Shown piece after piece: positions 5,919 through 51,700 of a stretch of 64,000 bases of DNA. The DNA lies in contig NC_049986.1 in assembly GCF_000003815.2 (NCBI RefSeq), positions 18,347,049 to 18,411,048 on the forward strand. Reading direction: 5' to 3'. This DNA comes from Branchiostoma floridae. Taxonomy: Eukaryota; Chordata; Leptocardii; Amphioxiformes; Branchiostomatidae. Below the pieces are notes generated by a model. It had not been told where the DNA came from, made no database searches, and saw nothing but the letters and a program-made list of their open reading frames with translations. Made by a program: the position numbers and the translations under genes. Every line of letters starts with the position of its first letter. The first letter of the stretch is position 1.

Positions 5919-6115
5919 CTACAGTATATCGGCGACGTCCTCCATCTTACAATCCAGGAGAATCTGATAGAGTTTAGCGACCGTGGCGTCCGGCCGTTTG
6001 TGCCAGTCGGCCAGCATCTTCTCAGCGGGGTTACTCCTGGCCTTGTTGTGCTCCCAGAGCTGGGCAGTCTGCGGCAGGACCCCGATCCGTTCTGCTACCA
6101 GCTTCCAGTCTTTAC
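5919..6115 (-). CDS. Adaptor exon 6: death-domain helices 2-6 and stop
   Basis: Acceptor CTTCCCTCCGCAG leads into GKDWKLVAERIGVLPQTAQL and finishes KMEDVADIL with TAG at 5921-5919. The 3' end of this exon seeded the tandem array at 4740-5918. Confidence 0.8.
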
Positions 6116-12100: not shown

Positions 12101-14003
12101 GAACCGTTCCGCATGCAATGAAGTTGATTCCGAGGAAATCGGACATTGTTTTGGGAAACCTGTATTTTTTGCGAAAAAGGCTCTTTTTGGCTCAGGAGAG
12201 CAAATTAACATTTTTCAACAAACAATGCGTATGTCAGATGTTGAGGAACTGTTCCGCATGCAATGAAGTTGATTCCGAGGAAATCAAACGTCTTTTCATG
12301 ACACCTGTATTCTTTGTGAAAAATGCTCTTTTTGGCTCTGACAGGAGAGCAAAATACCATTTTTCGACAATGTGTATGCTTGAGGTTGAGGAACTGTTCC
12401 GCAAGATGCATGTCTAACGTTGCTTTTTGAGATTGGCACTGTTCCCGTTCGTGTGTATCCTGTATAGAAATGGCGAAGTAAACCATAGCCAGTATAACAC
12501 TCTCAGAATTCGTTCACTGCACATTTTACTACAAGTTTAGATTTGGTGGCTTATATCAAGCGTAGGATGAGAAATCTTTAACTTAAATCATTAACTTTCA
12601 TTTGATATTTAACTTTCATTAGACAATTTTCGCACTCTTCATTAGGTATCAAGTGGGGCAACGAATCCATAGAAAATACGGAAAAGGATTTGCAAGGACC
12701 CATTTGCCGTGAGGTGGGGCAACGTACATGTATACACGGTCAATTTTTTTAGGGCAATGCCTTCAACATATTGAGCGCTGAATTTGAAGACCCAAAGCAT
12801 TGCAAGGGAAGTTGGAGAATTCTTAATTCTAACCCTCTAAAATGGTATTTCCCACATTTTTATGGACAAATTTTCCTGCTTAAAGCTTAATGACTAGTGT
12901 TAAGCTGTCATTATCATTAAGCTTAATGACAATTCTGTTGGCAGGAAATGTTTTTAGGACGACGCAGTTGATCTCCTTTGGATAATTGAGTCATCATTAC
13001 AGTCATTCACACAGTGTTTAGTTGCCTTGTTATGTACAATTTCTTACAAACTTGTACTACTTGATCAATAGTGATGAAACACTGCATTGCCATTGCTGTT
13101 TCAAGGCACCTCTATACTGTACTTAATACCAGTAGCCTCTAGTTTATCTAAGTAAGTAGGTGTGACAGATTGATTGTTAGGGAGTTTCCCATGTGACATC
13201 ACTAAAGCCACTTGCTACAGTACACATGCATCATGTCAGCCAATGTGACAGAATGTCTACTAGTAGTAGTATGTTCCCAGACCTTGGCATGAAATTGCAA
13301 TTCAAGTGTGTAATCACAGGCCTGGGATGCCCTGTCTGCTTAGTCTCTCCTTGTTTAGAAGATTGTGTGCACTTTTGTACCTCACAAAGCAATGAAACAA
13401 CCCTAATAGGCTAGCTGTCTGGGAAAGCACACATACCTTGGGCTCCAAGCAGATCCTATAGTAGCATAAGATAGTATCTAAAGCTGGCTGTGTGAGGAGT
13501 TTTGCTACCGGCGCAAATGGACACCTTTTGGATGACTACACTCCTTGGCCAGTTTGGTACTATCTTTTGCCATTGTAGTGTCTGATTCAAGATTAGATGA
13601 GTATAACATCTGTTGGTTGAAGGTCCCTTTCATGATCCTTCTTGTTTCCCCTAGGAGCTCCCCTATAGTTTCTGATGCCTGGGGCCACTTGCAGCCATGT
13701 ACATGACTGTATACATTGCATTGTGTAATGTCACCAGTGAACACACTGTGTGCTAGCCTGGTATCCAGCTGTAATAAAGCTCCCAGGCTATATTACGGCT
13801 GGATACCAGGCTATCAGTGTGCACCCTTCTGGGAGAGAAAGAAATTATCGAATGCCTATCTGGACCTCTGCTAAGATGATCAGTAACCACATCATTGGAT
13901 GTGCATAGAACTCTTAACTTGCAAACCAGCTAAAACGTAATCTCTTTTTTACCACTGCAATTTCATTTCTAGACTTGGGCTAAGAACAAACTTTATCAAT
14001 GGT

Positions 14004-23300: not shown

Positions 23301-26226
23301 GGAACCCTGGACACGAAGAGTACCTAACTTCGGTTTGGGAGGTAAAAAGGCGGTGGAAGGAGAAGATGCTTTGTCTTCCAATACCTTGTCCTACACACAA
23401 TGGATAACAACTCACTGTGCCCCTACGGCCTCATAAGGCAATGGCGGGTAACCTTTATATGATTGCGTATACCCCTACTTTCGTGGTACCACAAAACCGA
23501 TAACATTCTCCTACAAACAGTCGAACCCCGTCGTAGACCAAGCCATGTTCAAGGACGAGGGTTCGTCTCTGTGTCGGAGAATGAAAAATAAGGATTGCTC
23601 TACAAACGTTACTTACAGTGTAGATATCTACATTTAGGGAACTGATAAAAAGATTTATTACTTACCACCGTTCTTGGAGGATGCAGACTCCCTCAGCCCC
23701 TCCTCCCTCAGCGGACGGGCGAGCTCGGGCTGTTTCTTCTCCAAGACTTTGACGAAGGCTTCAAACGCCTCCGCTCCCTTCTGTGGCAGGATCTTCAGGA
23801 ACCTGGTGGCGCGGTCTGTGGGAGTCTGGCCGGCCAGAACCTCCGCCTCCTCGCTCTGGTCAAATACCTGGGAGTCAGCGCAAAATATTGTGTTAACTCC
23901 ATGAATTGGCTTATTTGTGTGTTTGCTTACGTGTTTGATTGTTTCTTCTGTATGGACTATGATGATATTTGATGGATGGATAAGTCTTGGGAAGGTCAAT
24001 TTTGTGCTCTCAGATCTCTCTGAGATCAGGTCTGTGGGAGTCTGGCCGGCCAGAACCTCCGCCTCTTCGCTCTGGTCAAACACCTGGGAGGCAGCACATA
24101 AAATCAGTCTCTACCAGTCTCCCGCCTGGCCGAATAGTAGTATATTAGTAGGGGACTTTGGCCACGTCAGGAATTAAAGTCTGGATAGTCTTCAAAAGAC
24201 TGACTAAGATCCCATGGCAACTTATTTGTCCCTATATTTGGTGGCCTATTTCTTCTCTTTTGTCATCCAGCTGACACGTCTGCTTGGAGACTAGCATAAA
24301 GTATGCCGTCATATTTTGTTACCTCCATGAAAAATGGAGGTATTGTTTTTTGGTTTGTCTGTGTGTTTGCTTATTTCCTCTGTATGGATTGTGATGATAT
24401 CTGATATAAGGATAGGTCTTGGTAAGGCAAAAGTCAATTTAGGGATTTCTTGTGGCTCTACCAGACTCCACAGGTTGCTGGAAAAATAATAGAAATTGGA
24501 CGCAGACAGACGCAGACAGATAACATGTCAGACGAGTCGGTCGCAAACCATACTCCACAGCCAGCTAATTCCTCTGTCATGTTATGCATCTAACATTTGT
24601 TCAATTTTTACTTTTTTTCCCGCCACCTGTTGAGCCTGGTAGAGGCTGAGACTTCCATACGAACCACATACGACGGACCTGAATATATACGCACACGTGT
24701 GTGAACCCCTCTTTCGGGTCTTACAAGGGAAAATACCTGCCTGTCATTCCTTAATGTTTGGAGTCGGCTGGATTAAGACGACTGGTGGTTAAGTAAACAG
24801 TTCTACTCGGGTGTAAAGTACAGCCCTTAAACATCGTCAACACCTCATCGGGCGAATGAATGAGACAATAACAACGTCCACAATAAAAGCATTAAGGAAA
24901 GATAACACAACATTGTTCCCCTAGCAATAGGGGTTACTCTAACATGGTGCCACGTATGCACGCCACAGTTGACACAAAGGGGGAGATTTCAAAGTCTCAC
25001 CACAATCAAAACATTTACAGTACATTTTTATGCCTCCAACACATTAAGATTTTCACGTCTGAAAGAATGCAAGACAATTGGACTGAATTGTGGCTGACTC
25101 CGTGTACTGTAGTGGTGACAACATCATCATATTCAATCTCCAATCATATGTAGGATTCGGCTCAGTCTTTCAAGTGTATGTTTTTGGGATATTATGGGTC
25201 TTTTTAGGATCCGCAAATAAAGGAAGACTTTCTAAATGCCACTCGAACTCAAAATCAAACACTAAACATTGAGACTTAGGAAGTTATAAATCTACTCCAT
25301 GGTTTGGTTTAGGGCCAAAGTTGAACCAATTCAGGGGCGGTGGCAGTGCGTTTATCGTAACGTTATCCACACGTGCAAACAAGGCAAGTTCTTTGCTTTC
25401 TCAGCAACAAAAGCACTTTGATAGTATTCAGCAAGACTTCACGGAACAATTTGTACCTCAGTGTGTGAACACTGCAATATTTACATCCGGCACCCATGGC
25501 TTTTCGGCAACAATTTCTCCGTGGCTATGTACATTCTCTGGTTAACGCAACTTAACGTACAGCGTGTTTGTCGTGAGCAATCACCGAATGTTACATCAAA
25601 CATGACATGCGTCTTTTTACAGCAAATATATCCAAGAGTGCCTAGACCTTAGAACCAATATTGTAAATGATACTCAAGCAAGACTTAACATGCTGATATT
25701 TTGATACTTATCCGTAGTCACTCATATAGGTAATTCATCATGTATGCACCTGTTTGTCCACATAGATGTTTGTAGCAGTCCTTACAACAGTCTCTGTACT
25801 TTTGTTGTGTCAATAGACATATCATAACGCCTTAGAAAGGCCTGGTGGAGGCTAGTATCAGTCAGTAGTACATGTAAGTCGGATTGAACAAGTTTAAAGC
25901 AAGATTTGACGAACACATGAAAGGACATCCTGTCGTCTATGACTACAGGGCACTGGATCATCCCCTAAGACCGACAATGTCAGTATCCTGAATTGAAGAG
26001 CAGCCCAAACTGTAGTGGTCACTCCTACCGGGCTGGAACAACTCTACTCTACTCTACTCTACTCTACTCTACTCTACTCTACTCTACTCTACTCTACTCT
26101 ACTCTACTCTTGAAACCACCTTACCGCCAACATCTGTACGAGCACCCTGGTGGTCTGCATGTCCCGTACCAGCTGGCGGTGGTACCTGCGCAGCAGCAAC
26201 TTGTGGAGATCCTTCATCTCAGTCAT
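5919..26226 (-). CDS. CARD + death-fold + MyD88-like death-domain adaptor (six exons, 287 aa)
   Basis: Joining 26226-26125, 23867-23666, 8274-8144, 7579-7441, 6632-6540 and 6115-5919 gives 864 bases with every splice phase consistent. Residues 1 to about 95 form a CARD (LVRDMQTTRVLVQML, then TDRATRFLKILPQKG and AFEAFVKVLE). Residues about 103-190 look like a second death fold (WFRLVEKLPFEGEE; VLRLLASCQNVPIRRVARA; EVERGDVADTL). Residues about 195-287 are a death domain close to the MyD88 pattern (DLPRDVRLRLTTELN; KDWKLVAERIG; LADWHKRPDATVAKL; DVADIL). No TIR, kinase or caspase domain is present, so it is an adaptor. CRADD/RAIDD has the CARD-DD order in about 200 residues; here about 100 extra residues lie between. 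Known CARD and DD proteins assemble caspase- or kinase-activating complexes; the partner here is unknown. The 15-kb gap between exons 2 and 3 could hide a further phase-neutral exon. Confidence 0.75.
6540..6632 (-). CDS. Adaptor exon 5: linker and death-domain helix 1
   Basis: Acceptor CATCCACCAG and donor GTCAGT bound 93 bases reading KLADTLPIKDLPRDVRLRLT then TELNISRSAG. The LPRDVRLRLTxxLN run is the N-terminal signature that MyD88 death domains carry. Confidence 0.7.
6701..6917. mobile_element. MITE with TAGCCTCCATAGCAG ends
   Basis: Terminal inverted repeats TAGCCTCCATAGCAG and CTGCTATGGAGGC enclose about 190 bases that are themselves largely palindromic (GTACTGGGTCGCT / AGCGACCCAGTAC). 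A second copy is at 60528-60645, and a single end survives at about 4651. Confidence 0.75.
7441..7579 (-). CDS. Adaptor exon 4: end of the middle death-fold region
   Basis: Acceptor GAGAGCAGCAG and donor GTCTGT bound 139 bases reading NGSYPVLRLLASCQNVPIRR and AAREVERGDVADTLRANLP. The frame continues past the donor, but the phase into exon 5 supports splicing here. Its 5' part is duplicated at about 7660-7760. Confidence 0.7.
7660..7760 (-). repeat. Partial tandem copy of adaptor exon 4 with its acceptor
   Basis: On the minus strand the copy shows the same lead-in (GACCTCGTTGTGAGCAGCAG) and then reads NGPNQVLRLLAVCQ, after which it diverges. It has no matching donor, so it is a pseudo-exon. 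Confidence 0.75.
8144..8274 (-). CDS. Adaptor exon 3: start of the middle death-fold region
   Basis: Acceptor CCTTCCTCCAG and donor GTAAGT bound 131 bases. The frame set by exon 2 reads KATFLSQQLRHKLSSLPDF and QWFRLVEKLPFEGEE. No long ATG-led frame covers it, so it was recovered from phase and splice sites. Confidence 0.7.
8315..8535. mobile_element. MITE copy (AGTCTCTACCAG family)
   Basis: Starts AGTCTCTACCAGACTCCCGC and ends near CTGACACGTCTCCTTGGA. A better preserved copy lies at 24105-24297 and ends CTTGGAGACTAG, giving short inverted ends. The interior shares CCATGGCAACTTATTTG. Confidence 0.6.
8538..8895 (-). mobile_element. Repeat element with a palindromic 31-bp minisatellite, copy 1
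   Basis: A shared body (CCGGTTTAATTTGGG twice, then TTAATATCGCATATGTTAGG) leads into about six 31-bp units built on the palindrome CAGAATTCTGCAGAATTCTG. The same structure occurs in the opposite orientation at 22940-23294. Confidence 0.7.
8896..9984. other. Intronic sequence, no gene seen
   Basis: Part of the adaptor's large intron. A piece at about 9360-9450 (AAAAAATCCGTGAACCAAG; TTGGTGTGGCC) matches a repeat at 38665-38745. Nothing coding is supported. Confidence 0.4.
9985..12420 (+). repeat. 17-copy satellite, about 145-bp unit
   Basis: The word GGCTCAGGAG (first copy GGGTCAGGAG) recurs at about 10005, 10150, 10296, 10441, 10587, 10731, 10877, 11022, 11167, 11312, 11458, 11604, 11749, 11897, 12044, 12189 and 12334, a spacing of 144-148 bases. 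Internal units are nearly identical and the outer ones diverged. Between about 10150 and 11000 two unit types alternate: CGAAACCTGTA with AATGCTCTTT, and CGAAACGTGTA with AATGCTGTTT. That is a dimer of about 291 bases. The frames of up to 125 codons inside it repeat with the unit and are not genes. Confidence 0.95.
12421..13750. other. Intronic sequence, no gene seen
   Basis: Contains only fragments of dispersed repeats, such as CTCCAAGCAGATCCTA near 13444 and CCTTGGCCAGTTTGGTACTA near 13545. The latter reappears inverted near 14620. Confidence 0.4.
13754..13813. repeat. Small foldback, TAGCCTGGTATCCAGC arms
   Basis: TAGCCTGGTATCCAGC and GCTGGATACCAGGCTA pair perfectly across 28 bases, and the pairing extends inward with GTAATA/TATTAC. 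Confidence 0.75.
14006..14093. repeat. (AT)n microsatellite
   Basis: About 88 bases of uninterrupted TA dinucleotide. Confidence 0.95.
14290..14335. repeat. (GT)n microsatellite
   Basis: About 23 uninterrupted GT units, about 200 bases from the (AT)n run. Confidence 0.95.
14336..15372. other. Intronic repeat mosaic, no gene seen
   Basis: Segments near 14590-14690 and 14880-14980 are diverged, partly inverted copies of the 13440-13590 repeat. They share CAGATCCTAC, TAGTACCAAACTGGCCAAGG and TAGGATCTGCTTGGAGA. Nothing coding. Confidence 0.4.
15376..15571. repeat. Direct tandem duplication, 98-bp unit, two copies
   Basis: CAAAGATAAAGGAAAAGTTT starts at 15376 and again at 15474. The two 98-bp units are virtually identical, which suggests a recent event or an assembly artefact. 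Confidence 0.9.
16050..16530. mobile_element. Foldback element with AAGGCGGCAGAGTACAGT ends
   Basis: The left end AAGGCGGCAGAGTACAGT and right end ACTGTACTCTGCTACCTT are inverted repeats about 480 bases apart. No open frame for a transposase is present, so it is non-autonomous. Confidence 0.6.
16531..17662. other. Intronic sequence, no gene seen
   Basis: Contains a CTCCAAGCAGATG repeat fragment near 16578. Frames of 61-73 codons are not supported by any splice or family evidence. Confidence 0.35.
17663..17762. other. Assembly gap (100 N)
   Basis: Exactly 100 N, the usual placeholder for a gap of unknown size. It lies inside the adaptor's large intron, so an exon could be missing here. Confidence 0.99.
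17940..18440 (-). pseudogene. Possible decayed retroelement C-terminal fragment
   Basis: On the minus strand near 18100-18020 the translation KSKCAHCQGQQTLCHVLNMC resembles the CxxC...T..HVLnxC tail found after the reverse transcriptase of some retroelements. Upstream of it on the same strand, 18440-18108 is a 110-codon frame of unknown kinship, rich in Lys and Arg. The frame is broken shortly after the motif. I cannot name the family. Confidence 0.35.
18441..19369. other. Intronic sequence, no gene seen
   Basis: No coding or repeat structure could be supported in this stretch by eye. Confidence 0.3.
19370..19571. mobile_element. Long foldback MITE, CATAATTCCAC ends
   Basis: CATAATTCCAC followed by AGGTGCCAT...ATACCGCCAC is mirrored by GTGGCGGTAT...ATGGCACCT followed by GTGGAATTATG. 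Interior arms (GAGGCCATCTCAAGATTGTC / GACAATCTTGGGAAGACCTC) also pair, so nearly all of its 200 bases fold back. Confidence 0.8.
20245..20718. mobile_element. Foldback element, about 470 bp
   Basis: CACACGAGAGCACGAATGAG...TCGGAATGAAAATTCTTTT on the left is mirrored by AAGAATTTTCATTCTGACGG...CTCATCCTTCTCATGTGA on the right. The interior is repetitive (GCATTC / GAATGC words) with no open frame. Confidence 0.7.
20900..22935. other. Intronic sequence, no gene seen
   Basis: No splice-supported coding segment is visible. Scattered short frames have no supporting context. Confidence 0.3.
22940..23294 (+). mobile_element. Repeat element with a palindromic minisatellite, copy 2 (inverted)
   Basis: Reverse-orientation counterpart of 8538-8895: about six units on CAGAATTCTGCAGAATTCTG, then the shared body ending AAATTAAACCGGAGGGTG. 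The two copies face each other across 14 kb of one intron. Confidence 0.7.
23666..23867 (-). CDS. Adaptor exon 2: CARD helices 2-6
   Basis: Acceptor GACTCCCAG and donor GTAAGT bound 202 bases encoding EVLAGQTPTDRATRFLKILP and on to the end of the CARD. It ends in phase 1, which matches exon 3. The 5' part of this exon is duplicated at 24028-24094. Confidence 0.8.
24028..24094 (-). repeat. Partial copy of adaptor exon 2 with its acceptor
   Basis: On the minus strand an acceptor (GCCTCCCAG) is followed by codons for FDQSEEAEVLAGQTPTD, identical in protein to the real exon. It then diverges and lacks the donor side, so it lies as a pseudo-exon just upstream of exon 2. Confidence 0.8.
24105..24297. 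mobile_element. MITE copy (AGTCTCTACCAG family)
   Basis: Starts AGTCTCTACCAGTCTCCCGC and ends CTGCTTGGAGACTAG; same family and orientation as 8315-8535. Confidence 0.6.
24300..26040. other. Adaptor intron 1, no gene seen
   Basis: Contains a segment near 25830-25990 (AAAGGCCTGGTGGAGG...) that recurs at about 27345. No other structure is supported. Confidence 0.35.
26041..26110. repeat. (ACTCT)n pentanucleotide microsatellite
   Basis: About 14 uninterrupted ACTCT units ending 15 bases from the exon 1 donor of the adaptor gene. Confidence 0.95.
26125..26226 (-). CDS. Adaptor exon 1: start and first CARD helix
   Basis: ATG at 26226-26224 opens 34 codons ending in phase 0 before donor GTAAGG. 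An in-frame TGA lies a few codons upstream, so this ATG, or the one three codons later, is the start. Helix 1 of the CARD is encoded by LLLRRYHRQLVRDMQTTRVL. A short upstream reading frame overlaps the start. Confidence 0.7.
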
Positions 26227-30776: not shown

Positions 30777-33700
30777 CTGTGGGAGGTGTCATTGATGAAG
30801 GTTAGATATCCAGGTAATAAATAGGCAAGGTAAGGACCGGTTCACACTTACATACTTGAGTATATTCACATCTGTGTGAGTTTTGTATTGGTATCATTTT
30901 GGCTAGATAATCAGGCTGCACAACAGTGGTCAACAGAAAAAAAAAGTTTTCTCCATAAACTTTACCTAAGCCAAAAGATGTCAATACATAACCTGCAGTT
31001 ACTTATTACAAGCTACTGGATAGAAGTTGGAAATAGACTGTTCAAACAGCATCCCGTGCCTCAATATGATATACAGTAAAAGACACCAAACTACACAAGA
31101 CGTTAAGTGAATAGTCGTGGGCATTATATGTGTATATTTCTATGTATATATTTCTATTTTTCGTTTCCAGAAACAGCCTGGCCAGGTCCTGGTTTAGAAA
31201 TGTGATGATAGCCCCTCACTGTGCCCATCTTACTATAAATATATGACTTTTGACAATTTTACCGATCCTTACCGAACTTAAGGCTAATTTTCGTACCTTT
31301 TAATGGCCATAACTCACTAACGGTACGCACGATTTAGTTAAAATAAAACCATTCGGTTTCTTTCATCAAGACCAATGACATCAAGTTCAAAACGATATAA
31401 AGGGTTTGAATTTTTTGTGTTATATACATTTCTATTTTTAGTTTCCACAAACAGCCTGACTGTACCCACCTCACTGTACGCCAGGTGCTCGGCCAGGCGG
31501 CGATCCCGTTCTTCCTGGTCCAGTCTCTCCCGCTCCTGGGCCAGGCGCTGCTTGCGCTCGGCCTCGCGTCGGAGCTGGTACTCGATCTCCGACAGTTCCT
31601 CCGCCTTCTGCGCCTCCAGGGCCACACGGTAGTCGTTCGCTTCCTGAAAAGTCAGACAGAAATTCACTTTCTTTGTATTGCATAGACAGTACTAGTACTA
31701 GGGGTGGGCAGTTTTCCATGTTGACCAGCCTCCAGGGCCACACCGTAGTCGTTCGCTTCCTGCAATGTCCGGCAGAAATTCAGTTTCGGCAATGAAGATT
31801 AGACATCCAGATAAGATATGCCAAAAAGCAGATACTCAAGCAACAGTGTCACTGACAAAAACAACAGATCTTGTTTGAAATGTCTGACTGTTTCCAAAAT
31901 CATATCCAGTGACTCGAGTAACTGTTTTTTGTTGAGAAATCCAGTTTGTTTGTATTGCATACCCAGTAATAGGGGTGGGCATTTTTTCTGGTTGGACCAG
32001 TCTGAAAATGGACCTGAAAAAAATCAGTTGACCGGATCTTGGACCGATTAGTAATTAACAGATAATATCAGCAGGCGTTAACATGTTTTGGTGCTTACCG
32101 GTTTAAGAAAATAACAAGAGCGAAGTAGAGTAGGGTTCATATTCATGTCTACGAAGTTTCTATGGTCAAATTTTGCGTTTAAGCTGCATATCTGGGCAGA
32201 TTTATTTGATCTATTCACCCTGGGATGATTCCTACTAAGTGTGGGTCCTGGTTATATTTCCTGGCACATTTTCAAATCTCTCAAAAACAATTTCTTTCCA
32301 AAACACTCCAGTGGATAGAAATAGATCAGTAAAGAACAAGAAAAGGAAAAAAATGGCATAAGTTGAACTGACCAGGTCGTCTTGAACAGCATGTCTGTTC
32401 CTGTCGGTAGAATCGGAGCCCGGCTTGGACCGGTGACCGTTCTCAAACTCCTGAAGCTGGCGAGCGATCTCGAAGTCGCTGGCGGTGTCGTCCTGACTTC
32501 TGGGCAGGGTCTTCCACTGGGAGAGATAGGACAACAAATATCCATGAAAACATGTAGTTTCATCAGGTTGGTATGTCACTGAATTTAGAGACTTTTTTTA
32601 CACAACCACTGCTTTATTCTCACCGACAATTCGGTGACTGTCTGTCACCTCCTTCAGGGCAATTCTGACTGGTTCACATTGTACTGCAGGACAGGTGTTG
32701 CTGCTCACAGTTCAGATGCGGTCACAAAACATATTTACATATGTACAGACAGCCTTTGTGACCACATTTGAACATTACATTAAATCTGTGTTTGAAATTT
32801 GCACTGTCTATGTCCAAATCTCCATTCCTCTCTAAGTGGGGAAGTGTACATGGCAGAGAACTAAGAACAAAGGACAACTATACACAGTTCAGATGCAGAA
32901 CGTCAACAAATATTCAGACTTCGTGACTAAAGATACTGTAAATGCAGAAATGTTTGAGGTTTTTCGCGGTGGCTACATTTTCCATGATACATGTAGCTTT
33001 TCTATTACAGTCTATGGTGCTACTGCGAAGTTAAAACCGCCACAAAAACTCAATTTTCCCGCTAACGCTAAATTGAATCCCCGTGAATTTAAATGCATTT
33101 ACAGTACTTTATACTTCCTTCAATAGGAAAAATTAAGAGACCAACAACACTGGCCAGGTGATAGTAGAGCTGGTCACTAGTAGAAGATTGGCTAACAACG
33201 AACAAATTTTCAGCAAAGCATTCAAGTGACTACTGTGGATTTGTTCATGACGTATAATTTGCAAAAAAAATTAATGCTGTAAGTTAGTAAATGTTGTAGT
33301 ATGGATAACATCAGCAATTTCTGGGATACTGAGACTTTGGTAAGTAAATTAGTGACAACAATTCAGACTAATATGTTATCCACCTGTTTGTCTTCTCAGT
33401 ACCAAACTTTCAGGGTCTCTGAAAATCTAACTTGTTCTAGGAACTAAATGTTTAAGGTAGCAGCAGGTGCATGTAAAAAAAGTCTGTGATTTATTTGTTA
33501 TCAGTAATGGTAAGTTAACATTATGGTCGTTACCGTGAAAACCCTGAATATAAAGGGACATTGAAAAAATCAGGAATTACAGTATATGTTATCCACCTGT
33601 TTGTCTTTCATTCCCACCCTCTGCAGCTCTCTCTCCTTCTCGCGAATGCCAAGTTCGATCCGCTGGAGCTCGTACGCCAGCCGCTGGTCGTCGTTCAGCT

Positions 33701-36700
33701 GTTTGTCGGACACGCTGCTCTTCAGCCAGGCCAGCGCGTCCTGCTCACGTTTCAGCAGCATGGCGTTCTTAGCCTCCTGTAACAGGCACAAGATTTAAGT
33801 TAGGGATGTGTCCATGTCTCTTTTGGACCTGCTGTTCTAAAAACAATAAGAAACTGGATGCCCTAAAGATGCCCATACCCTGGGGAGCACATCCTCTGAC
33901 AAGCATAAAGTTCTGATTGACCAGGAATGCTACTAGTCTTCAACTGTCTTAAGAAAGGTTGCACCATCCACATTTCAGGTTGCCCCATTTCCAAGTTACT
34001 ACTTATCCATTATCTTTTCTTCCAGTTACAAGTATGTTTTATCTCATCAAGTAATGAACACAAAAGCTTATGCACATAGTGGGGGAAAAGCAGTGTTCCA
34101 ACTGCAAAATTTCAGGTTGCGCACTGTACTATCTGGGTTTAAAATTAAGTTGCACCAAGCAAAATGTGGTTAAGTTTGCAACTGAGTATTTCAAGCATTT
34201 GAAAAATCAGGAACAGAGGATGGGCTAACAACTCCTCCCTATAAAAATCTGTTACTGAAACAGCATGGAAACTTGTTGCCCTATGTGCCACTAGGTACTA
34301 CAAGTCTAACAACAACAATGACAACAACAACAACACAAAACCCCTGACCTGGATCTGCTGTTGCTGCTGGTGGGAGTTGATCTGGTTGTTGATCTGTCGG
34401 AGCTCCAGCTTCAGCTGCTCTCGCTCTACCGTGGACGTGCCCGAGGCACGCGACGTCACCACCGGAGCGCTTGGGAGATTATTTATTCTGCAGGGTAAAG
34501 AATTATGCCTCATTCTCCGATGAAAACCAATTCTGCATTTGCTTAAGTTGCTTACATAGGTATAGTTACATGACATGCGCCAGCTCAGGATAGTTTTTCC
34601 ACTGATGGAAAAGTTGCCACACACACAAACACCCGTAAGTAAACAATAAAAACTACGTAACCATACATACACAATAATCCAACAAAGTCACGAATTTGTG
34701 TCATCCTCATGTATGCAGCTATGATATAAGAAAATATGTTTTACAATCTGCTGTCTTGAAATGTTATTCAGGGCTCGAAGATCATTTTTGGGATTAGGTG
34801 CACTGGTGCACCCAGGTTAAAAAAATGGGTGCACCAAAAAATTTTTGGGTGCACCACTTAAATTTACGTAATGATATAATAATAAAACTTAGTTACAAGC
34901 CATCAAATTCTTAAACAAGTACCATAACAGACATTTTTATTATCTTTCTAACACTCAGATGTCAAGAATATGATGTATACTAGTATTTTGATATTTTTAC
35001 ATATATAAACATAAGAAAATATTTGGGTGTACCCTGTGCACCCACAGAAAATAATTGGGTGCACAGCTCCAATTTTGGGTGCACCTGGGTGGACAGACCC
35101 CAGTATTTCGAGCCCTGTTATTCAAACAGTAGCAATCTGTGTGCCAAACATGATTATATAGCTCTGTTCAAATAACTCGTCTTAAAGCAAATTAGTACAT
35201 ACGAATTGTGTCTGCTACATGTATGTCCTGCCCAGGGCTGTCTCCAGCTTTAAATTTTTTTTCCGTCCCACTCATTGTTTGAGAGCCCATGTTGTTGATT
35301 TTCTTGGTTAAATATGTCTGTTTAAGCTTATGAAAGTACATTTCCAACAGCTTTGTTTGGAATAGATGGGGTAAAATTATTTTCTGTTCCAATTCAACAA
35401 GCAAATTTCTGTCCCAGGACGGAAGGACGGATGGGTCCTGAAGACAGCCCTGGTCCCTTCCCCGATTCAGACTGAGCTGGGACACCTTCACCCAACAAGC
35501 ACCAGTTCTCTGAGTTTCCCTTTCTTCAAACCAGGTAAGGATGGTGACCAGGCAAGCTTGCAATCATCTTGAAAACTCCAATTCAATACATCTGTACTCC
35601 ACTTAAGCATTGTACAACATGGTCAGGTAAAAAACATAAAAGTCAAAATAAAAGCTAGCATTGCGTTGCTGGCTGTTAGTAGCAACAACACTGAGGTCAG
35701 CTGCCTACAAATGTGGCAACGAGATTTGACAACATTCACTTCACGTCAGAGCAATCAAGCAAAATAATGTTAATGCCAGCCAATCAAAGCAACTTAAAAC
35801 TAAGCCACAGAATAGCGCTTAACCAGTTTCTCTATCCGTGTGTTCAGCATTTGATTTAATGCATCTGAGAAAAAACAAAACACAATAGGGAATTTTTCAA
35901 TTAGGCTATGTCAATCAACTACGAAGGGATTCTTACTACCAGTAAGAAAGCGTTTGACGTTTTGTCAACGTTCAAAACCTGTCCATTTCTGCAGAGGACC
36001 TGGGACAGCCTTGGCAAGGGTTTTACCTGGACTACCATCCCTTCCTGGGGCCATGCAAGAGGGAGGAGGGAGAAGTGAACTAACCTAGTGTTTTGGGACG
36101 GATCCTCTCTGAAACATACACAAGGCCGAGACAGGTCAACAGGTTGATTGATTCACACACAGCAAGTGTCAAATCAAAAGGCAAACCAGGACTGGTGACG
36201 AAACAAACCGGCAAAGACACGAGGAAGGAAAGCTCGACTTCGCAAGACTGGCCTTACCTGTCGGTGATGTTCCACACGCCGCGGTACATGCTAACCGCCG
36301 GCTTCTTGGCGTATCTGCTATCCTGATCCTCCGGGTCGGTGGGGCTGTGGACTCGCTCGTGCGTGGACTGGATCAGGTTCTCCGTGGACTTGACGGACAC
36401 AGTGCTGGTGTTCCCCGCGATGGCGTTGGATTGGTATGGTCCGGTGTTCCGTATCATGGCCCTAATTCAAATACACATTTTGTTGTATATTAAATAAGTA
36501 CACAGTTGATTTATTTCATTTTACTTGACGTATGTCCATCACTGATTTTCAGTTCACCCTATGTTTGCTTTTTTTTTAGTTCAAAGTTTGTTTGTTTGTG
36601 CCTTTATTTATACTCGAAAATACTTCATTCGGCCATCTGGGCCGCTTTTTGTGGAGGTTGAGCTTGAAGAAGTATCAGGGGTCAAATAATAATGTTAATA

Positions 36701-39700
36701 CAAAAATTCTATCGATAATACAGAGAATAGAGGCATGCTAAATAAATAATAATAATGAAAACAAATAATATTCATTAGCTCGTTAATTCCACACTCGTTC
36801 GTCTATCGCTTCGGTGTTGCTAGTTTTTTGAAAGTTGAGGTTGCAGCTCTAGCGTCCGGTACGAGTTATGATTTGTTGTATATTTCTGTTGTTATATTTC
36901 TATATATTTTAATATGGACTCAAGGAAGACTAGTGATTTATTACTAGCAAAGTTGGACAAGTCCACTAGCCCTATTGTCCAGGGCAAGAGAAAGTGCTGA
37001 TCGGGCAAGTGCATGACCTACCCCACTTGCCGATTGAGCAAGTAACATTTTTCCATTGAGTGAGATTTTGACATACTTGTTTCTATTAACAGTCATGACA
37101 TCAAGCAATGGTCAACAGAGAAACATAGAGGCAATGATGATAATTCCATTGCTGAAAGTGAAAATGCATATGGAAGTGACATTTGAATTTGGGGCAAGTG
37201 AAAAATTGGTTTGGGTAAGTAAATTTTTTATGTATTTGCCCAATTGAGTGAATTTTAGAAAACTTGTCCAACCCTGACTAATAGAGATCTCAATAAACCA
37301 AACCCACCTGGCTGTGCGTGAGATGGGGCCGTACTTGGACACCATGGGGGTGCTGGAGAGGGGGATGAGTCCACTCTACTATATACTCCAATCCAAACCA
37401 AACCAAACCAAACCAACCTGGCAGTGCGGGAGATGGGGCCGTACTTGGACACCATGGGGGTGCTGGAGTAGGGGATGAGTCCACTCTACTATATACTCCA
37501 ATCCAAACCAAACCAAACCAAACCAACCTGGCAGTGCGGGAGATGGGGCCGTACTTGGACACCATGGGGGTGCTGGAGAAGGGGATGAGTCCACTCTACT
37601 ATATACTCCAATCCAAACCAAACCAACCTGGCAGTGCGGGAGATGGGGCCGTACTTGGACACCATGGGGGTGCTGGAGAAGGGGATGAGTCCACTCTACT
37701 ATATACTCCAATACAAACCAAACCAAACCAAACCAACCTGGCTGTGCGTGAGATGGGGCCGTACTTGGACACCATGGGGGTGCTGGAGAAGGGGATGAGG
37801 TCGTCCTCCAGCTCCTTGGCGCGCTCGAGCGTGCGGCGCTGCACCTCCTGACGGATGAGGTACCCCGGCTGGTCCTGCCCACGCAGGTAGTTCAGGTCCT
37901 CCCGTACCAGGACCTAAACATTTCAAAATAAATAGATAGCTAAATAAATATCTGCCATTAAGCCATTAAGTACCCAATTTTTGTTTGAGTACCTCCTCGA
38001 ACACAGATCCCCCGTTTTGCGTCCCTTCTGAAAGGCGAATTCTTGGTCAGGCTACAGCATCTTCGTGAATTCTCGGTCGGGCTACAGCACCCACTCTTCC
38101 TTGGTGGTCCCCATCCAAGTACTTGCCAGACTGCACGTTGCCTAACTTCCGAGATTGAGGGGATTGGGTGTAGTAAGAAGTAATATGAAGTATATAAAAT
38201 AGTAATCACATGATATAATGATATACATGAGTTAAAATGATATATAATCTGACATTTACATGCTGCTGTTAAGTGTTAACAGCTGGTCCTACCCACCCAG
38301 GTAGTTCAGGTCCTCCCATACCAGGACCTAAACATTTTTAAAATCAAGTTTAAAATCAACTGCACAACGATTGGAAGTCAGGTACAATGTATGGCAAATA
38401 ACGTATATGACTAACAACTATTAACTATCTACACTAGTGTACTAATAAAAACATTGAATACAGAATATGGTGGCACAATGCATTTTACATTGCTATGACA
38501 TGATTTCTCTTCTGTACAGCATTATATATGTTCACCTAGGTGGACAGATATGGATTCAAGACACGATAGAAGGATATTGAATATTTCTCTACTTGTTTTA
38601 GGTAATGTTGTTCTGTTGTTACATATGATCAATAACCTCTGACTTCCTTGATTCATTATAAAATTTTTTTTTTTTTCGCCTTGCCCGTCCCATTTTTTTC
38701 TGAAAAAATCCGAGGAGCAACAAATAAATTTGGTGTGGTCTAAACAAACAAAAAATAAGGACCTGTGCCAGCGCCTCGTCCGAGAGGCGGCGGATCTCCG
38801 TCACGAGCGAGCTCTCTGTCGGGTAGTTCCTGCTGAAAGACGACTGCGAGCTGGACACCACGGTCGTCGAGGAGGAGGAGGGAGTGGCCGTGTGCGGCAT
38901 GACGTCCTTCGTCTGGATCAGGGTCCCGCTCGACCACGGGCTGTACTCCTTCGCCTGCTCTGTGCTGTCCGACTGCACCTGTCAAGAATTGCCAATAACA
39001 AAGAGTAAGAACATGAGACACGAACTCTCCTTTGTTCCTAGAGCAATCAAATACTGTAAATGCATTTAAGTTTGCGGGGATTTAATTTCGCGGTAGCGGG
39101 AAAAGGACTTTTCGTGGTGGTTTTAAGTTAGCGGTAGCACCATGCATTGTAGTCTCTTACTGCCATAAAAAAATATTCGTGGTGATTTTGAATTTGCGGT
39201 AAAGCAGCTCTGTCACGCTGACGATATCTGTGGCTATAGTATTCTGTTGTCACTAGTATTGCGCATGTGCAGAAAAATACATGCAGTTAATTTTTTTCTT
39301 GTAAATTCTATGTGCATTATTGCTTACCGACATAAGTTATATCCATTTTGTCTCTCCGTCATTGCTATATTTAAATCAGTGTTTAGCCTTTAAACAAAAT
39401 GTGATTATGCATGTTTGTAAATTTCGTAATAACTTTTACTTAGGATTTTATGGAATGTAATCTATTGGCACATTTCATGTGGCATTTACAATGTTATTAT
39501 TGTTGGTCACTGCATGCGGAAAAGAAGTCAAACCCATCAAATAGCTTAAGTAGAAATAGATTTAGATCAGTCATTATTTCCTTTTGATTTATCTATGAGT
39601 ATCAATTTCCTTCTTTGTCAAGCATGATTATGTATACCACTACTGCTTTACTTTGTATGCAATTAGCCCTCGGGCATGAATTTGCAATATAAAGATTATC

Positions 39701-42700
39701 ATTATTACCTCGCCATCCTTTTCCGTCTCGTCAGCGTAGTCTGGCTTCCGCGGGAAAAAGGGAGTGGCTTTGGAGTTGAGGGTGGAGGGGGGCGTGTGTG
39801 CAGGGGAGCTGTAAGGGGAGGGGGAGGGGGAGCGCGCCACGGGCATGCAGTGTGCAGGGTGGTTCAGCTGGGCCAGGAGTTCGTCCCTTCTACGCTGTAG
39901 GTCCTTCAGACTTTGGCTTTGTAGGCTCTGTGGTGCAAACAGGGAAACAGAGTCAATTCTGCAACAAATTAGCATTTTGTATGTTGTGATAAATAAAGCC
40001 TCTCACTCAAAGCATGTAGCAGTTAATTATAATAGGTCCTCCAGGCTTTTGTTTTGTAGGTTCTGTGGGGGCAAAACAGGGAAACAGAGTCAATCCTCCA
40101 ACAAGTTAACATTTTGTATGATGTGATAAATAAAGCCTCTCAAAGCCTCTCTCTTAAAACATGTAGCAGTTAGTTATAGTAGGTCCTTCAGACTTTGGCT
40201 TTGTAGGCTCTGTGGGGCAGACAGGGAAAAACAGAGTTAATCCTCCAACAAGTTAGCATTTTGTATAATGTGCATGTAGCAGTTAGTTATAGTAGGTCCT
40301 CCAGGCTTTTGTTTTGTAGGTTCTGCGGGGTTAACAGGGAAAACAGAGTCAATCTTGCAACAATCCCCTGCTCTTTAACTCAAAAGTTAATCTATGTTGG
40401 TAGAAGTAATTTTTAAGTTGGCAGAACTGTTGTTTTTTTCCAATTTTTTTTAGTTCGCTCTCGTTCCAGAAGTTAGCATTTCGTATGGTGTAGCAGTTAG
40501 TTAAAGTTTAAGTCCTTTCTGCTCCAAATGGTGCATCGGGCAGTGCCCATCTCAGGAGCAGGAGCAGGAGCAGGAGCCTAGTCTACTGGTAGTGTTGTGT
40601 ATTCTTTTCTAACTGCTGAGTGCTTAGGCCTAGGAAAAAAAATGTTGTGTTTCCTGTTTCAGTCGTGAAAAAATTAGGGTCGGTAGGTAGGGATTATCTT
40701 TTTTTTCTTGTATTTTTTTTAGGCTGGCCAAAATTCTAGTGATACATATTTACAATACAGTTGAACAAAGTAAACTGAAATGTATGATGACACTTGTCTT
40801 TCAATGTCAAACTTTAATTTTGTGCATGATAGATACATTTATCCTTCATTAGATAGAACAAGCAGTGTTTTACTTTAATAGGAAGCAGGCTAAACAAAAA
40901 TTCTAACTGGAAGCTATACTTAGTGACTCCACTGCCCACCCAAAAAAAAAGTCTAGGGTCGGCAGGTTTTTTTAGGGTAGGTAGGGAAACAGGAAACACA
41001 ACATTTTTTTTCCTAGGCCCTACCAGAGAAAACACCGTGACAGTACTGTTTTTAAAGCCTTTCATATGACTTAGCCGGGGATGGAACTCATAACATACAA
41101 AGGCGAACAATCTACTTACTTGGCCATTGCTTGACTTGATATATATGTAGCAATAGCCTGGATAAATCAAGATTGTAACAGCTGTCCTACATTTTTTTCT
41201 TGTTGAAAAAATCTAAAACTGATGAAATTTTAATCTTACCATTGGCTGTGACATGCTCCCCTGGTAAGGCCCTTGGTACTGGTGCACCATGCCGTCGTAG
41301 TCAGCATATCCGCTTCTGGTGGAGACTCTGACAGGCATGTCGTCCCGAAGGGAGTACCGCGGCCAGGCCCCCCTATCCATGGGCGGGGCGTACTGCTGTG
41401 GCGGGTACTGGTTGGCTGGCGGCGGCGGCGGGTAGATACCGTTTCCGTAGCTGTCCTGTACGTACGGTCGATGGGGGAACGGCGGCGGCGGCGCGGGGTC
41501 CTGGGGACGATACGACGCTGGCGGGGGATACTGCGCTGGATACGGAGGGGTCATGGGAGGTGGCGGTGGTTGTTGCGGCATGTACTGCGGGTGTTGTGGA
41601 GGGTAGTAACCGCCTGAAATAGACAAAGGGAGAAAACGAGAGCGCAGTTAGTACCTCTGTTGTTCACTTTCACGGCAATCCATTTGCTTTCTTTGGATGT
41701 GAGAGCACCCGATCCAAAGAGGATTCTTGGTCTCATTTCACTTCAAACACTTTCCTATGGAAAGAAGTGTCACATGTCACGTCACAACCATACTTACCAA
41801 AAATATATATACGGCTAGTAAATAAACTACCCTCTCATCACTCAACTTTCACACAGCTGGAAAAGGAAGATATTTTTAAGTAGTACCATACCACAAAACA
41901 CGGCGGTGTTACGCAAGGATTAAGTGTAACAAAAACATGGTACCTACCTGATTACCTAATAAAGCTTACGTCTCACATGCTGTACATGGTCTCATCATCA
42001 CCATCTGGTGCTACACCTTAAAATTGATTGGTACAAGAAGAAGTGGTACGGTATGGTACGAGTAGGTAAGCAGCGCACGGTAACTTACTGACAACCCTTG
42101 GATAACCTGCCTCCACGGGCACCATCTGCACTTGCACTGTTTCCACCATGTAAGTCGGACCTTCTGCAAAACAACCCCATAGTCAACATGCTGGAACCAC
42201 GACACATACACAGCGGGTACGTCCCCTTTCCTGTCCTGAGTGCCTCACTTCTCTATACATACAATCAGGGCTCTAGCCAGCGTCCGTTTTTCCGTCAATT
42301 GACGGAAATTTGCTGCGTGTGACAGAAAAATTTTTAAACCAATCCTTGACGGACAAAATTCCTTGGTGGAAGGTACAGGCGGCTTGGGGACGCCGTCCAC
42401 GGCCGTAAAAGCCACACACTGTTTGTTTTGCTATTGTGTCGGTGCCCTTTCGCATACGATAATCTCATTAAAACCCGTTTTTCAAGGTCTCAGTTCAGTC
42501 TCCCTAACTCATGGAATAGTGTTTACGCGACAATGGGAATTGGCTGACGGAAAAAAATTTCGAGCTGGCTAGAGCCCTGCATACAATAATGTACTACGCT
42601 GTTTTTCCTGACAACTTGGTTCATTGGTTGATCTCATCCAAGTAGCTGTCTTACATGTGTATCTGCAGGGCTTTGGGACCAAATCTAGCTTATACATACA

Positions 42701-45700: not shown

Positions 45701-48700
45701 GGCTGTCTCATGGCGCCCCCTTGTGGCTGGTGATGGTACTGCTCCATGGATGCGACCCTGGGTGGGTACACTGCCTGTCTGCTGTACGAAGACGGTGGAG
45801 ACTGAGACGGTGGCATGTCAGGCGGCTCCCTCAGACCGACCCCACTGGTAAGGAGTGTGGGTAAAACAAACGATTAATATCTGTGTACGGGAATGGACAA
45901 CTGTAAAGGGAGAAATATTTCTGGTAATCTACCTTCACGGCAGGAAGAAAAGGGAATTTTGCATTATTTTAAGACTAAGTTTGCAGGAGCAAATACCGAG
46001 AAGAGGAAACGTTCTCAGTGGTTTTACTTTCAAGTTCCCAAGGTAGAGCCCACAGCCAAAAATGCGACCAACAAATGAAGATTTTCACTTTTACAGTACC
46101 CATTTTCAACCTGCACTTTGTATTAGAAAACGTATGCTTTGTGTACCACTACCAGACAGAAAGGTCTCACACTGCAGTGACTTACTTAGAACTGTGTTCT
46201 GAGACAGTCGACCTTGAGACCAGGCCTGGAGGTGGTGGAGAAGGGGGAGAGGACGTTCCCTTGGCGACCAGGGGGCTGCCTTTCTTCACTTCCCCCTTAA
46301 AGGAGGGAATCTCCTTTGTGGTCCCTTTCTCCACAGCTTTTCTGTTCCTAGCACGGTACCTGTACGGAACAGAATGAAAAAAAACAACTTTTGCGATGAA
46401 CAATTTTCAACACTTTTACCTTCACTTCAACACCGGGACTCTGCATTCATTTTTTGGGAATATACCAGCCACTTTAAAACTTGCACTGAACAACAGAACC
46501 TTCACATACCTAACCCAACGCAAATATCAGTGTATCCACAGGGAAATATCAGGTGCAAAACTCTAATAATTCTAGGTGCACAAAATTCCATAAGCATTTT
46601 TAGTCCCGAAAACGTAATCTTTTTTCATGGTTTTTGCATCAATTCATTGTAAAAGCAAAAATCATTTCATCACAGTTCCATGCAAACAGATGATAGCAGA
46701 GTTGATCCATGTTGCTCCCCTACCTGTACATCTCCTCATCGGAGTGTGCAAATGTGCAGTTGATGCCACGAGGGCAGCCGGTTCCGTTTCGGTTCAGGTC
46801 CCGGCACATGCTGGTCTTATATTTCCCACTTGTCACCTGGGGAAAACAAACAGTAGAGAAAAATTCAAACACTGGTAGCTGCCACAACATTCTAGTCTCT
46901 GATTCCTGGGGCTTTGAGGAGTTATTGGGGTTCTCACCAGGATTATTTCATGGGACATTAGCACGCTGAAGCCGCATAGCAAGCGGCGTAGGTGTGAGCA
47001 TTGAAGGGGAGCCTTTAACCCTAAGAAAGACTAACTCTTGCATCTTGAGGGACAATTCTAACGGAATGATAAGGAAAACATTTTAAACCTTTTTAGGGCA
47101 AGAGAAGATCAGAAACGCCTCCTATGCTGGTTAAAACACAGCATAAGGGCTCAAACCACAGCATAGGAGATACAAATCCCAGCGTAGGGGCCTCAACTAT
47201 GCAGCTAAAACCCTGCTGAAGACCCACTATCACCCTAAAACAATATTTCATACTCTTGGGGTGATTTGAAACAGATCATGCCCAGTTAATAGGAATTCTT
47301 CTTCTAACAGTGATGTACTTTTAAAAGTAAATCGGACAGATAGCCATTGAAAATTTTGAGGTACTTGTGTTTACCTTTAAAAGTATGTCACTGTTAGAAG
47401 AAAAATTCATATTAACTGTGCTCATACGTGACAAATGAATCTCTTCAATGAGATCACGCCCAGTCCTCACCTGTGCAGAGTCGCCCTTCCTGTTGCCGCT
47501 GTAGTTCTGGATGAAGTCCACCACGCCCTGCACCACCAGCTTGACCGCCTGCATGCCCTTCCGGGTGTTGTCCCACAGCGGCGTCTCGCTGTCCGGGCTC
47601 GGGTCGATCTTGGCCAGCTCGTCGAAGTACGGGCGCAGGCGCGACAGGTTGGCGGGGTCGCCGGAGCGCTGCAGGGCGATGACCAGCTCGTTCACGCTCT
47701 GGGCGAAGGACGCTGGCGTCTGCAACTGTGGTGGGTGAACATGACTTTGTAAGTGATCTAGTCTGTGTAACACAAGCTCTGCTGTGCAGGGATGTAACTG
47801 GCCCCTACCCGCAGAGGAGGCCGGCGGATGTTTGGCAGGCTGCTATAAGTGAGATTTAATCAGGCTATGTGTGGTCTATACTTACGATGGATTACATGCC
47901 ATGATTTGAGTCCTGTCACATTTCTATCATCTAACATGTTTGCTACTACTACTACTAATAATTAGTTACTAATTCACATTTCCGTTCTTGTGTTCACCAG
48001 AATTTTGGAAACTTCATGTGACACAGAAAACAATAGTTCCATTGTACACAATGGATTTTCACGACTGCACATCTTCTCACATGATTATACAAGCAAACTA
48101 TACCTTCAGATATTGAATGATTTGTGACAACAAGGACGTTTGCCCGTTTCTAGTCTCTCCTAGCCAGTTTTGTCACATGTCAAAGCATATCTGCATCACG
48201 AGAGGAGAGTGGTTACCTTGTCGATGATAGACTGCATGTGAGACTTGTGAGCCGTGTCCCCGTACAGAAGAGAGGACCACTGCTCAGGAGATATCCTCAG
48301 TCCAGCCTCCATGGCTATCTGAACAATCTGAGCGTCGTGTTCTCTTCTCAGGCCGTCATATGTACGGAACTGTGGTAGAGAGACAGAAAAATCTGATGAA
48401 AACCAGTAACCAGCATTTGCTTTTAACAAATGAAGAATCTTTACCTTCCAATCTTACCAGAAATTGTCGTACTCACAAAAAAAGATACACGTACTAGAAA
48501 GGCCGACATTTGCTTAAGAGCAAATACAGCATATTTCAGCCATACCCCTTCCCACGCAACATTGGACTGTTCCAAATCACCCCTGCGCAAAAATGGAACA
48601 TCCTCCTAACAGTACATTATCCCCCAAAGTGGACTGTTATTGTGAATTGATTCCAGGTAAAAACAGAGCTTGCTTCTATTTTTCAGAAAATGACAATAAT

Positions 48701-51700
48701 CACACCTTCCATTCAGAAAATTTTCATCATGACTGAAAATTGTTGAATGACTTCATGTAATGTCATTAACAATTTTCAGTACAATAACTAGGTGTAAGTT
48801 TAAAAAAGTATAAGCTCCTTGTAATGTGGGTACATTTATTATTGCAGTGAACTTTTTTTATTCAAGTAGGGCATACGATTTAATAATTATCAAGCAGGTG
48901 CAGGTACTGTAGGAGCGTTTGTTTTCTTCAAGCTGTAAAACTGTTAAACTGTTTTACTTTGTATGCAATCAGCCATCGAGCCTATTCTTATTTTAGTTTA
49001 ACAACTTCCTGCCAGACCCGGAAGATACGATTGAACCTTGTTCGAGGATTTATTTTCGTCTGTCTGGTCAGTCTGTTCATACCCTGGCGCTGAGAGTGTT
49101 TTATTGGGCTGAAACTCTGGCAGTTTAAAGTTACTTACAATTTAAATGTTCAAAGTTTATGTCAAACAACAACAGCACTAGGAACACATACATTTGCTCT
49201 GGAGAAAATACAGCAGTTTTCGCAAGTTCGAATTCCAGTCCAGTCATAGAAATGTGGCCACTACAGACAGGTGGTCACTATAGAGAAAATGCTGATCTAT
49301 TGACTATGAGCCATACGTTACACATGATTTCAGTACACTGATCATTAGTTATATAAACATTGCACAGGTAAGCTAAATTGTTTAGATGTACAATTAAGTT
49401 CAAATAATTCTGAAGAGAAATATTGATGAGAAAATAATCATTCTCGCCACTGTCTAACTTATAATTACGTATCAAAACTAAACGCAGATTTTCTAACTAA
49501 CGCACCTTTCGCCGACTTCATCAAAGGATCGCCGGCTATCAATCAAACACGGCTGTTGATTAGACTTAGAGTTTCAAACAGTCATGTGCTGTGTGCCAGT
49601 TGACAGCGAACTTCATGCTACGTGATGTTTTACATTGCTTGGACCTTCTTTCCTACAGCGGTGCTTCTACAAAATATTTAGACTGTAACACTGAGTCCCA
49701 CATGTTTTATAGAATAGAATTTGACGCAGAACAGCGTTTTTTGCTGGGTATTTTTCTTGAAACATGTCCGTGGGAATATCAGCGAGGCGGCGACGTAGGG
49801 AAATCAGACCGTCAACAAAAGTCGCACGGCGGCTAACGGCGCAGCGAAGATACTAGCGCTATAAATAAGCGCTTCAACTAAGGATGGCAACCCGTACCAG
49901 GGTTCTAGCTAGTGCATTTTAGCATAGTGGGCCACTACGCTAAAATTTTTGACCACTACGCTAAAATAAGGGCCACTACGCTAATTTTTAACTAGTGTAG
50001 TGGTGCTTTGCTATCATTTGCTTGTTCAACAATGTCTAATCAATGTCTGAACAATGAAAACTGATGATATGCCACTCAAAACTGACCCCAAAATCCTTCA
50101 AATTACATGTGATGTTAACAGAGTGCCAACTTTTAACTCCACACCAATCTCCTGATTGATCGCTTCACTACCATGCCATTCCCACTACGCTAAAATAAAA
50201 TCCTGGCTAGAACCCTGCGTACAATATTTTTGTATACTGTTGAGCTAAGTAAAGTTTGTTGTTTATGAGGTTTTAGTTGTCTTTGAAGCTTTGACCCGAA
50301 ATATTTTAAAGTCAAACTGCTGAAGAGAAGTAAGTGACTGCTACGATTATCGTAGATATGGCCCTAAAAAAACTGATAAAAGAAGCCTTCTCAATAGTCT
50401 AAAATGCAAGAGCTTCCGGGGGGGGCTTCGCCCACCTGGGTCCCCCCCCACAGTGGCCCTGCCCCTGGACCCCGCCAGGGACATTCGGCGGCCCCCGGCC
50501 CCCTGTCCGACGCTTTGAAAAAATCCTGGAGAGAAGTCTGTACGGCCTGAGTCTTCAAGTTAACGTATTGTGTGGTCCCGCTTATGAATATTAATTAGCC
50601 TTCGCTTTCCTCTTCGCTGATTGGCTGAACCATTAATTGAATTAACTCTTCCTGCCGGCTAGACGCAGGTGCAGATGTCGGCTCTGTGGGGTGAACGTCC
50701 GAAAGGTCATGGCATGGAGAACGAAAGAAAACCAATTTCCCCTCAAAAAAGTGCTGTAATTAAGCCTTTTACAGTACTTTATGCCAAAAATTTTACTTGG
50801 ATCATTTTACCAACTATCTTATGCCTATCTATACCAAATGTTACTCATACCAGGGTACAGGGGTGCAAAACATACCGTTATAAGACCGTCAACAACAGTC
50901 GCACGGAGCTAACAGCGCAGCGAAAATACCATCGCTAGCGTTTCAACTTCGGATAACAAGTTATAAGTACTGTTGAACTCAGTAACTTTAAAGTTTGTTT
51001 TTAGTTGCCTTTGACAGTTTGACCTGAAATAGTGTTACGCTAAACTCCTGAAGAGAAGTTAAGTGACTGCTGCGATTATCATAGATATGCCCCTAAGAAC
51101 TGATACAATATAAAGCCTTCTGAATAGTCTAAAATGCGAGAGCCTTAGGCGGGCTTCGCTCCCCCTGGCGGGAACACTGCTATATACGGGATTATGAATA
51201 TTAATTAGCCTTTGGCCTCCTCTTCGCTGATTGGCTAGGTCTTTCATTCAATTAACTCTCCGGCTGACGCGCACAGGTGTGGCTCTGTGCGGGGTCACGG
51301 AAGGTCACGTCAGGAGGCCAAAAGAAAACAAATTTCCCCTCAGAAAAGTGCCAAAATTAATCATTTTAAAGTTGTTTATGTCAAAAATTTGACTTGAATC
51401 TTGTTACCAAGTATCTAATGCCTATCTATACCAAATTTCAGGTCATTTAATTGTAATACCAGGGTACAGGAGCCAAAAGTGTCCTTTTTTGGTCAAAAAT
51501 TGGCCAAAAATCGCAAAAATAAGCATTTTGCTGCACTGTACACCAAAAGTGTTATTGAATTTATATGAAGGTATTATCAAGGCACATCTGTGTCAAATTT
51601 CAGCTCATTCGGTTGCAATACCAAGGTACAGGAGCCAAAAGTGTCCTTTTTTGGTCAAAAATTGGTCAAAAAATCGCAAAAATAAGCATTTTGTTGTACT

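What the first reader, a model, noticed from the sequence alone, without database searches (positions are those of the whole stretch)
37285..37913. Five phase-compatible 45-nt cassettes at Roquin exon 12
Each of five tandem units has its own polypyrimidine-AG, 45 coding bases and a GT donor, and all begin and end in the same phase. If spliced as microexons, the transcript could hold one to five copies of a 15-residue segment that covers the conserved [10 protein letters not shown] motif. The last unit has the better donor (GTGGGT versus GTTGGT).
Basis: partly seen in the sequence, partly recalled or inferred. Interest (0 to 1): 0.8.

Follow-up and report, generated by a model that had tools for sequence, protein, structure and literature searches.

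The report
Lancelet exon-boundary minisatellite in Roquin
The end of one exon of a probable lancelet Roquin gene, with its splice site, has been copied four more times into the next intron; this is a known lancelet habit called a mirage, and the extra copies are most likely just spliced out.

Summary
In detail: five near-identical 45-nt units on the minus strand, each between an AG and a GT, all phase-compatible. But they are not five cassettes. Unit 1 is the 3' end of a 176-nt exon (37738-37913); units 2-5 are tandem copies of its last 62 nt plus intron start, lying in the next intron. The shared phase is one property inherited by copying. This fits 'mirages', the published lancelet minisatellites that span exon/intron boundaries (passages of PMC3087553 and PMC3902484). 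The window's own 513-Mb genome carries structures matching the prototypes: arrays at both ends of an exon with the best ADH-III match, and two of nine globin loci with 157-bp and 150-bp repeats across an exon-match end, the published periods. The same exon's acceptor side has one dead copy, and 5 of 32 other predicted boundaries in the window have local copies; 0 of 30 sampled myosin loci do. Published cases report undisturbed splicing. Most likely unit 1 joins exon 13 and units 2-5 stay intronic. Microexon use is untested, and consensus splice-site scores do not exclude it. New member of a known kind.

The parts
37738..37913 (-).
   Evidence: open frame and splice sites; placed in Roquin by collinearity with the RING and ROQ exons
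37628..37689 (-). unit 2: 62-nt copy of the exon end (45-nt part 37628-37672), donor GTTGGT
37528..37589 (-). unit 3: 62-nt copy (45-nt part 37528-37572), donor GTTGGT
37418..37479 (-). unit 4: 62-nt copy (45-nt part 37418-37462), donor GTTGGT, pyrimidine run broken by A
37308..37369 (-). unit 5: 62-nt copy (45-nt part 37308-37352), stronger donor GTGGGT, followed by unique intron
37295..37799 (-). whole boundary minisatellite (period 110/100 bp): 62 exonic nt + (GGTTT)n + 19-nt filler GAGTATATAGTAGAGTGGA, the filler found four times, only here in the window
38282..38347 (-). dead copy, in the preceding intron, of the exon's acceptor and first ~46 nt (91% identical; a stop follows in its frame)
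36258..36461 (-). predicted next exon (exon 13); its first base completes the codon left by exon 12
   Evidence: its acceptor scores poorly

Best explanation
The array is a 'mirage', a lancelet minisatellite made by tandem duplication of an exon/intron boundary. The last 62 nt of a Roquin exon, with the first bases of the intron and a short filler, were duplicated and then spread by unequal exchange to five copies. Unit 1 stays part of the exon; the spliceosome most likely uses unit 1's donor and joins it to exon 13, so units 2-5 leave with the intron and the protein holds the segment once. Shown: sequence, phases, repeat structure, like structures in the same genome. Inferred: splicing outcome, mechanism of spread, species.
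For: Repeat spans the boundary and keeps AG|GT in all five copies. The same exon's acceptor side has its own single copy. The window's own genome holds TRF arrays of 59 bp x 6.9 and 33 bp x 9.8 at the two ends of the exon with the genome's best ADH-III match, and 26 bp x 9.5 before a further coding-like stretch. Two of nine globin loci have 157-bp and 150-bp repeats across a match end; PMC3087553 gives 157 bp for BflGb9 (3' boundary) and 150-160 bp for BflGb6 (intron 3' end + exon 5' part). Five of 32 other predicted boundaries in the window are spanned by near-tandem copies against 3.8% of positions, binomial P 0.007. Middle units 2-4 share two variants absent from units 1 and 5, like the homogenised centre and excluded edges described for BflGb6. 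[quoted passage not shown] PMC3902484 passages say the same of Adh and TnC.
Against: No transcript could be examined. Unit 1's donor (matrix score 2.07) is weaker than unit 5's (5.97), so the exon's own junction is not the best donor on offer. The in-window enrichment fails if the TE block and satellite are kept in the background: 7 of 34 against 12.3%, P 0.12, reached by 176 of 1276 circular shifts. 0 of 30 myosin loci had a copy across either match end. The GFP family search, meant as a species test, found nothing, and its control rang nowhere.
Confidence: 0.87

Rival explanations
1. Units 2-5, or some of them, are spliced in as 45-nt microexons, giving a Roquin with 1 to 5 copies of a 15-residue segment.
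For: Any number of units keeps the frame. Acceptor-like scores of units 2 and 3 (2.48) match the exon's own acceptor (2.34) and exceed exon 13's predicted one (-3.04); all units have a GT donor. Variants within the 45 nt are two, both at third codon positions and silent. A duplication across an intron/exon boundary has given a new intron in a potato gene (abstract of PMC4974935), and PMC3087553 proposes exon recruitment from mirages as a model.
Against: Introns would be 55-65 nt, against 572-1770 nt for five predicted neighbours. Pyrimidine runs are short; unit 4's scores 0.69. The two silent variants travel together in units 2-4, so they are few events. Among units 1-4 the exonic 62 nt differ at three sites, the 48-nt spacer at one plus a 10-nt deletion, so there is no extra conservation of the copies. 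For PGBD5 a gene model put an exon inside such repeats without EST or mRNA support and the authors dropped it (PMC3902484 passages).
Confidence: 0.07
2. The exon runs on to a later donor, such as unit 5's stronger GTGGGT, retaining repeats, as a poison or truncated form.
For: Unit 5's donor scores 5.97 against 2.07 for units 1-4.
Against: Reading on through the array meets two adjacent stops before unit 5; the exon would grow by 430 nt.
Confidence: 0.04
3. The copy number is an assembly artefact of two haplotypes or of collapsed repeats.
For: PMC3902484 passages report different copy numbers of such repeats in two assemblies (2 versus 7; 3 versus 6); PMC3087553 reports 6 and 3 units on two haplotypes and an aberrantly assembled copy. 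The whole-genome search found the unit only at this one place, but scores only its best candidates.
Against: Units differ by ordered variants and by a 10-nt deletion; the same passages say resequencing confirmed the PGBD5 repeats.
Confidence: 0.02

Closest known systems
Amphioxus 'mirages' in Adh3, globins BflGb6 and BflGb9, TnC and PGBD5 (PMC3087553 and PMC3902484, passages)
   Same: Minisatellite-like tandem copies across an exon/intron boundary, on either side of exons, many copies keeping AG or GT, central units homogenised, in what appears to be the same genome
   Different: Another gene; the repeat also carries an in-phase AG 45 nt before the donor, so each unit could in principle be a microexon
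PGBD5 intron-4 donor repeats, 3 x 108 bp (PMC3902484, passages)
   Same: Near-identical period, first repeat abuts the 5' splice site, a gene model placed an exon inside the repeats
   Different: Described there as imperfect repeats; here five clean units at 93% matches
[quoted passage not shown]
   Same: Tandem duplication across an intron/exon boundary supplying new splice signals
   Different: There a new intron was detected in use; here no use is shown

Membership tests
Lancelet mirage minisatellite | Tandem repeats whose unit spans an exon/intron boundary | tested here: met
   62 exonic nt + intron start, AG|GT in 5 of 5 copies
Lancelet mirage minisatellite | Occurs in a lancelet genome | tested here: inconclusive
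Lancelet mirage minisatellite | Homogenised central units, edges excluded (as described for BflGb6) | tested here: met
   Units 2-4 share two variants; units 1 and 5 share the other state
Lancelet mirage minisatellite | Copy-number variation between haplotypes or in somatic cells | not testable with these tools
   One assembly, one place found
Lancelet mirage minisatellite | Regular splicing of the host mRNA despite the array | not testable with these tools
   No transcripts held
Microexon cassette array | Inclusion of the small exons in mRNA | not testable with these tools
   No transcripts held
Microexon cassette array | Frame kept by each unit | tested here: met
Microexon cassette array | Copied exonic parts more conserved than spacers | tested here: not met
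   Units 1-4: 3 variable sites of 62 exonic, 1 of 48 spacer plus one 10-nt indel
Roquin (RC3H) gene | RING and ROQ domains | tested here: met
   PF14634 1.1e-9; PF21206 7e-32 and, just under its cut-off, 9.9e-6; PDB Roquin-1 2.4e-36
Roquin (RC3H) gene | Exon 12 itself matches other Roquins | not tested
   No homologue covering this part was compared; assigned by collinearity and phase

The most novel reading that the evidence does not exclude
A mirage caught while turning into exons: because its unit happens to carry an in-phase acceptor-like AG, part of the Roquin transcripts include one or more 45-nt copies, so that minisatellite length differences between haplotypes would become protein length differences.
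Probability: 0.08. Interest if true: 0.6.

Novelty: new member of a known kind. Interest (0 to 1): 0.22.

Why it matters
It adds a clear donor-side case to the mirages and shows how such arrays can pass for cassette exons in gene prediction. Its unit, unlike the Adh-type donor array seen here, carries an in-phase AG upstream of the donor, so it is a handy place to test whether mirages ever leak into mRNA, the step the published intron-gain model needs.

Tried and rejected
Independent cassettes: rejected because unit 1 is the exon itself and the phase is inherited. Splice-site scoring with a simple human-like matrix typed from general knowledge did not decide: units 2-3 acceptors equal the exon's own, and exon 13's predicted acceptor scores worse than all of them. 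Species test by GFP family: 0 matches, control rang in 0 of 14 genomes, so no information. Paper search for B. floridae and '513' listed 12 of 76 papers and confirmed nothing from the listing. Literature search for amphioxus plus Roquin: 3 papers, none on this by title (listing only). The first-described Adh mirage paper (NAR 2002) is not held; what is said of it comes from passages of later papers. Prevalence sample: myosin 30 of 142 matches fetched, 0 of 30 with a copy across a match end; globins 9 of 9, two with a copy across a match end (in L020 a repeat starts 3 nt past the match end and was not counted); 30 of 129 kinase loci were fetched and not analysed, since most are open frames over the whole domain. 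The in-window count lists 34 predicted boundaries; one, at 5951, is really the stop-codon end of a terminal exon, and most rest on my own splice-site choice.

The weak donor of exon 11 (CAG|GTCCTT) and the AGGTCCT at both ends of intron 11 suggested intron gain by duplication; no outgroup was available, so it is only noted.

Full report
What is there. On the minus strand an open frame from 37913 reads [58 protein letters not shown] and ends at CAG|GTTGGT (37738). Downstream the last 62 nt of this exon recur four more times, followed each time by the intron start, a (GGTTT)n run and, between units, a 19-nt filler that occurs four times, all in the array. The 45-nt parts lie at 37782-37738, 37672-37628, 37572-37528, 37462-37418 and 37352-37308, with gaps of 65, 55, 65 and 65 nt. 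TRF gives 4.7 copies of 110 bp with 93% matches and self-BLAST E = 3e-140.

The gene. Upstream exons on the same strand carry a RING finger (PF14634, 1.1e-9) and the ROQ domain (PF21206, 7e-32), and the ROQ exon matches human-type Roquin-1 chains at 2.4e-36. Exon 12 is placed in this gene by strand, order and phase; it was not compared with another Roquin. The next predicted exon (36461-36258) begins with the base that completes the split codon.

Why the phase match is not evidence for cassettes. The 62 copied nt hold four AGs: the exon end, two out of phase, and one 45 nt from the end after CATCCCCTTCTC. In unit 1 this AG is inside coding sequence. Once a unit with such an AG is copied, all copies share spacing and phase.

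What class it belongs to. [quoted passage not shown] PMC3902484 (passages) adds PGBD5 (60 and 108 bp) and TnC, and tells how a gene model had put an exon inside the 108-bp repeats without transcript support.

Test in the window's own genome. G000 has 513,431,437 bases in 431 contigs. The best ADH-III match is an exon at C6:27454839-27455075, i.e. 6840-7076 of the stretch read; TRF finds 59 bp x 6.9 at 6464-6868 over its 5' end and 33 bp x 9.8 at 7054-7377 over its 3' end, plus 26 bp x 9.5 at 6028-6275. Of nine globin loci, L017 has a 157-bp repeat across the 3' match end and L021 a 150-bp array across the 5' match end. I infer, but could not look up, that these are the published loci and that the genome is Branchiostoma floridae.

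Within the window. Near-tandem copies (75% or more, 28 nt or more, within 1 kb) span 7 of 34 predicted boundaries, both of exon 12 among them; without exon 12, 5 of 32 against 3.8% of positions, P 0.007: acceptors at 39927 (three extra copies), 31643, 23867 and about 7590, and the donor at 33597. If the transposon block and the satellite are left in the background the excess is not significant (12.3%; P 0.12; 176 of 1276 circular shifts). In 30 myosin loci no copy crossed a match end, so mirages are far from universal.

How it most likely works. Unit 5 alone is followed by unique intron, so its GTGGGT may be the donor as it was before duplication (inference). Units 1-4 carry GTTGGT, scoring 2.07 against 5.97, yet similar to the predicted donors at 39709 (1.90) and 33597 (2.17). 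Units 2-4 share two silent variants against units 1 and 5, as expected if exchange homogenises the middle. The simplest outcome is unit 1 to exon 13, with the rest removed. Retention up to unit 5 meets stops. Microexon use would need introns of 55-65 nt, against 572-1770 nt for five predicted neighbours, but acceptor scores do not rule it out: 2.48, 2.48, 0.69 and 1.85 for units 2-5, 2.34 for the exon's own acceptor and -3.04 for exon 13's.

Verdict. A genuine and well-described feature of a known kind, with an ordinary most likely outcome and one open, cheaply testable alternative.

Noticed in passing
38282-38347 (-): Single dead copy of the same exon's acceptor and 5' part in the preceding intron, 91% identical.
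   Followed up: yes
39897-40363 (-): Acceptor-side array: three extra copies of the acceptor and first exon bases of another Roquin exon (start 39927).
   Followed up: yes
33371-33420, 31728-31787, 24039-24104, 7700-7766 (-): Single local copies of the donor at 33597 and of acceptors at 31643, 23867 (a CARD exon) and about 7590.
   Followed up: partly
4780-5951 (-): The tail of a death-domain exon, with its stop codon, recurs several times downstream with decay.
   Followed up: partly
38763 and 37913 (-): Intron 11 has AGGTCCT at both ends and a weak donor (CAG|GTCCTT), a pattern that intron gain by duplication would leave.
   Followed up: no
48477-55553: A roughly 3.6-kb block with a 163-bp satellite stands twice in tandem inside a Roquin intron (D4-D11 at 94-100% identity).
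   Followed up: no
15375-15573 (+): A perfect 98-bp tandem duplication holding TTTTCTTTAG, acceptor-like; gene not identified.
   Followed up: no
9991-12403: Satellite of about 145 bp, 16.6 copies.
   Followed up: no
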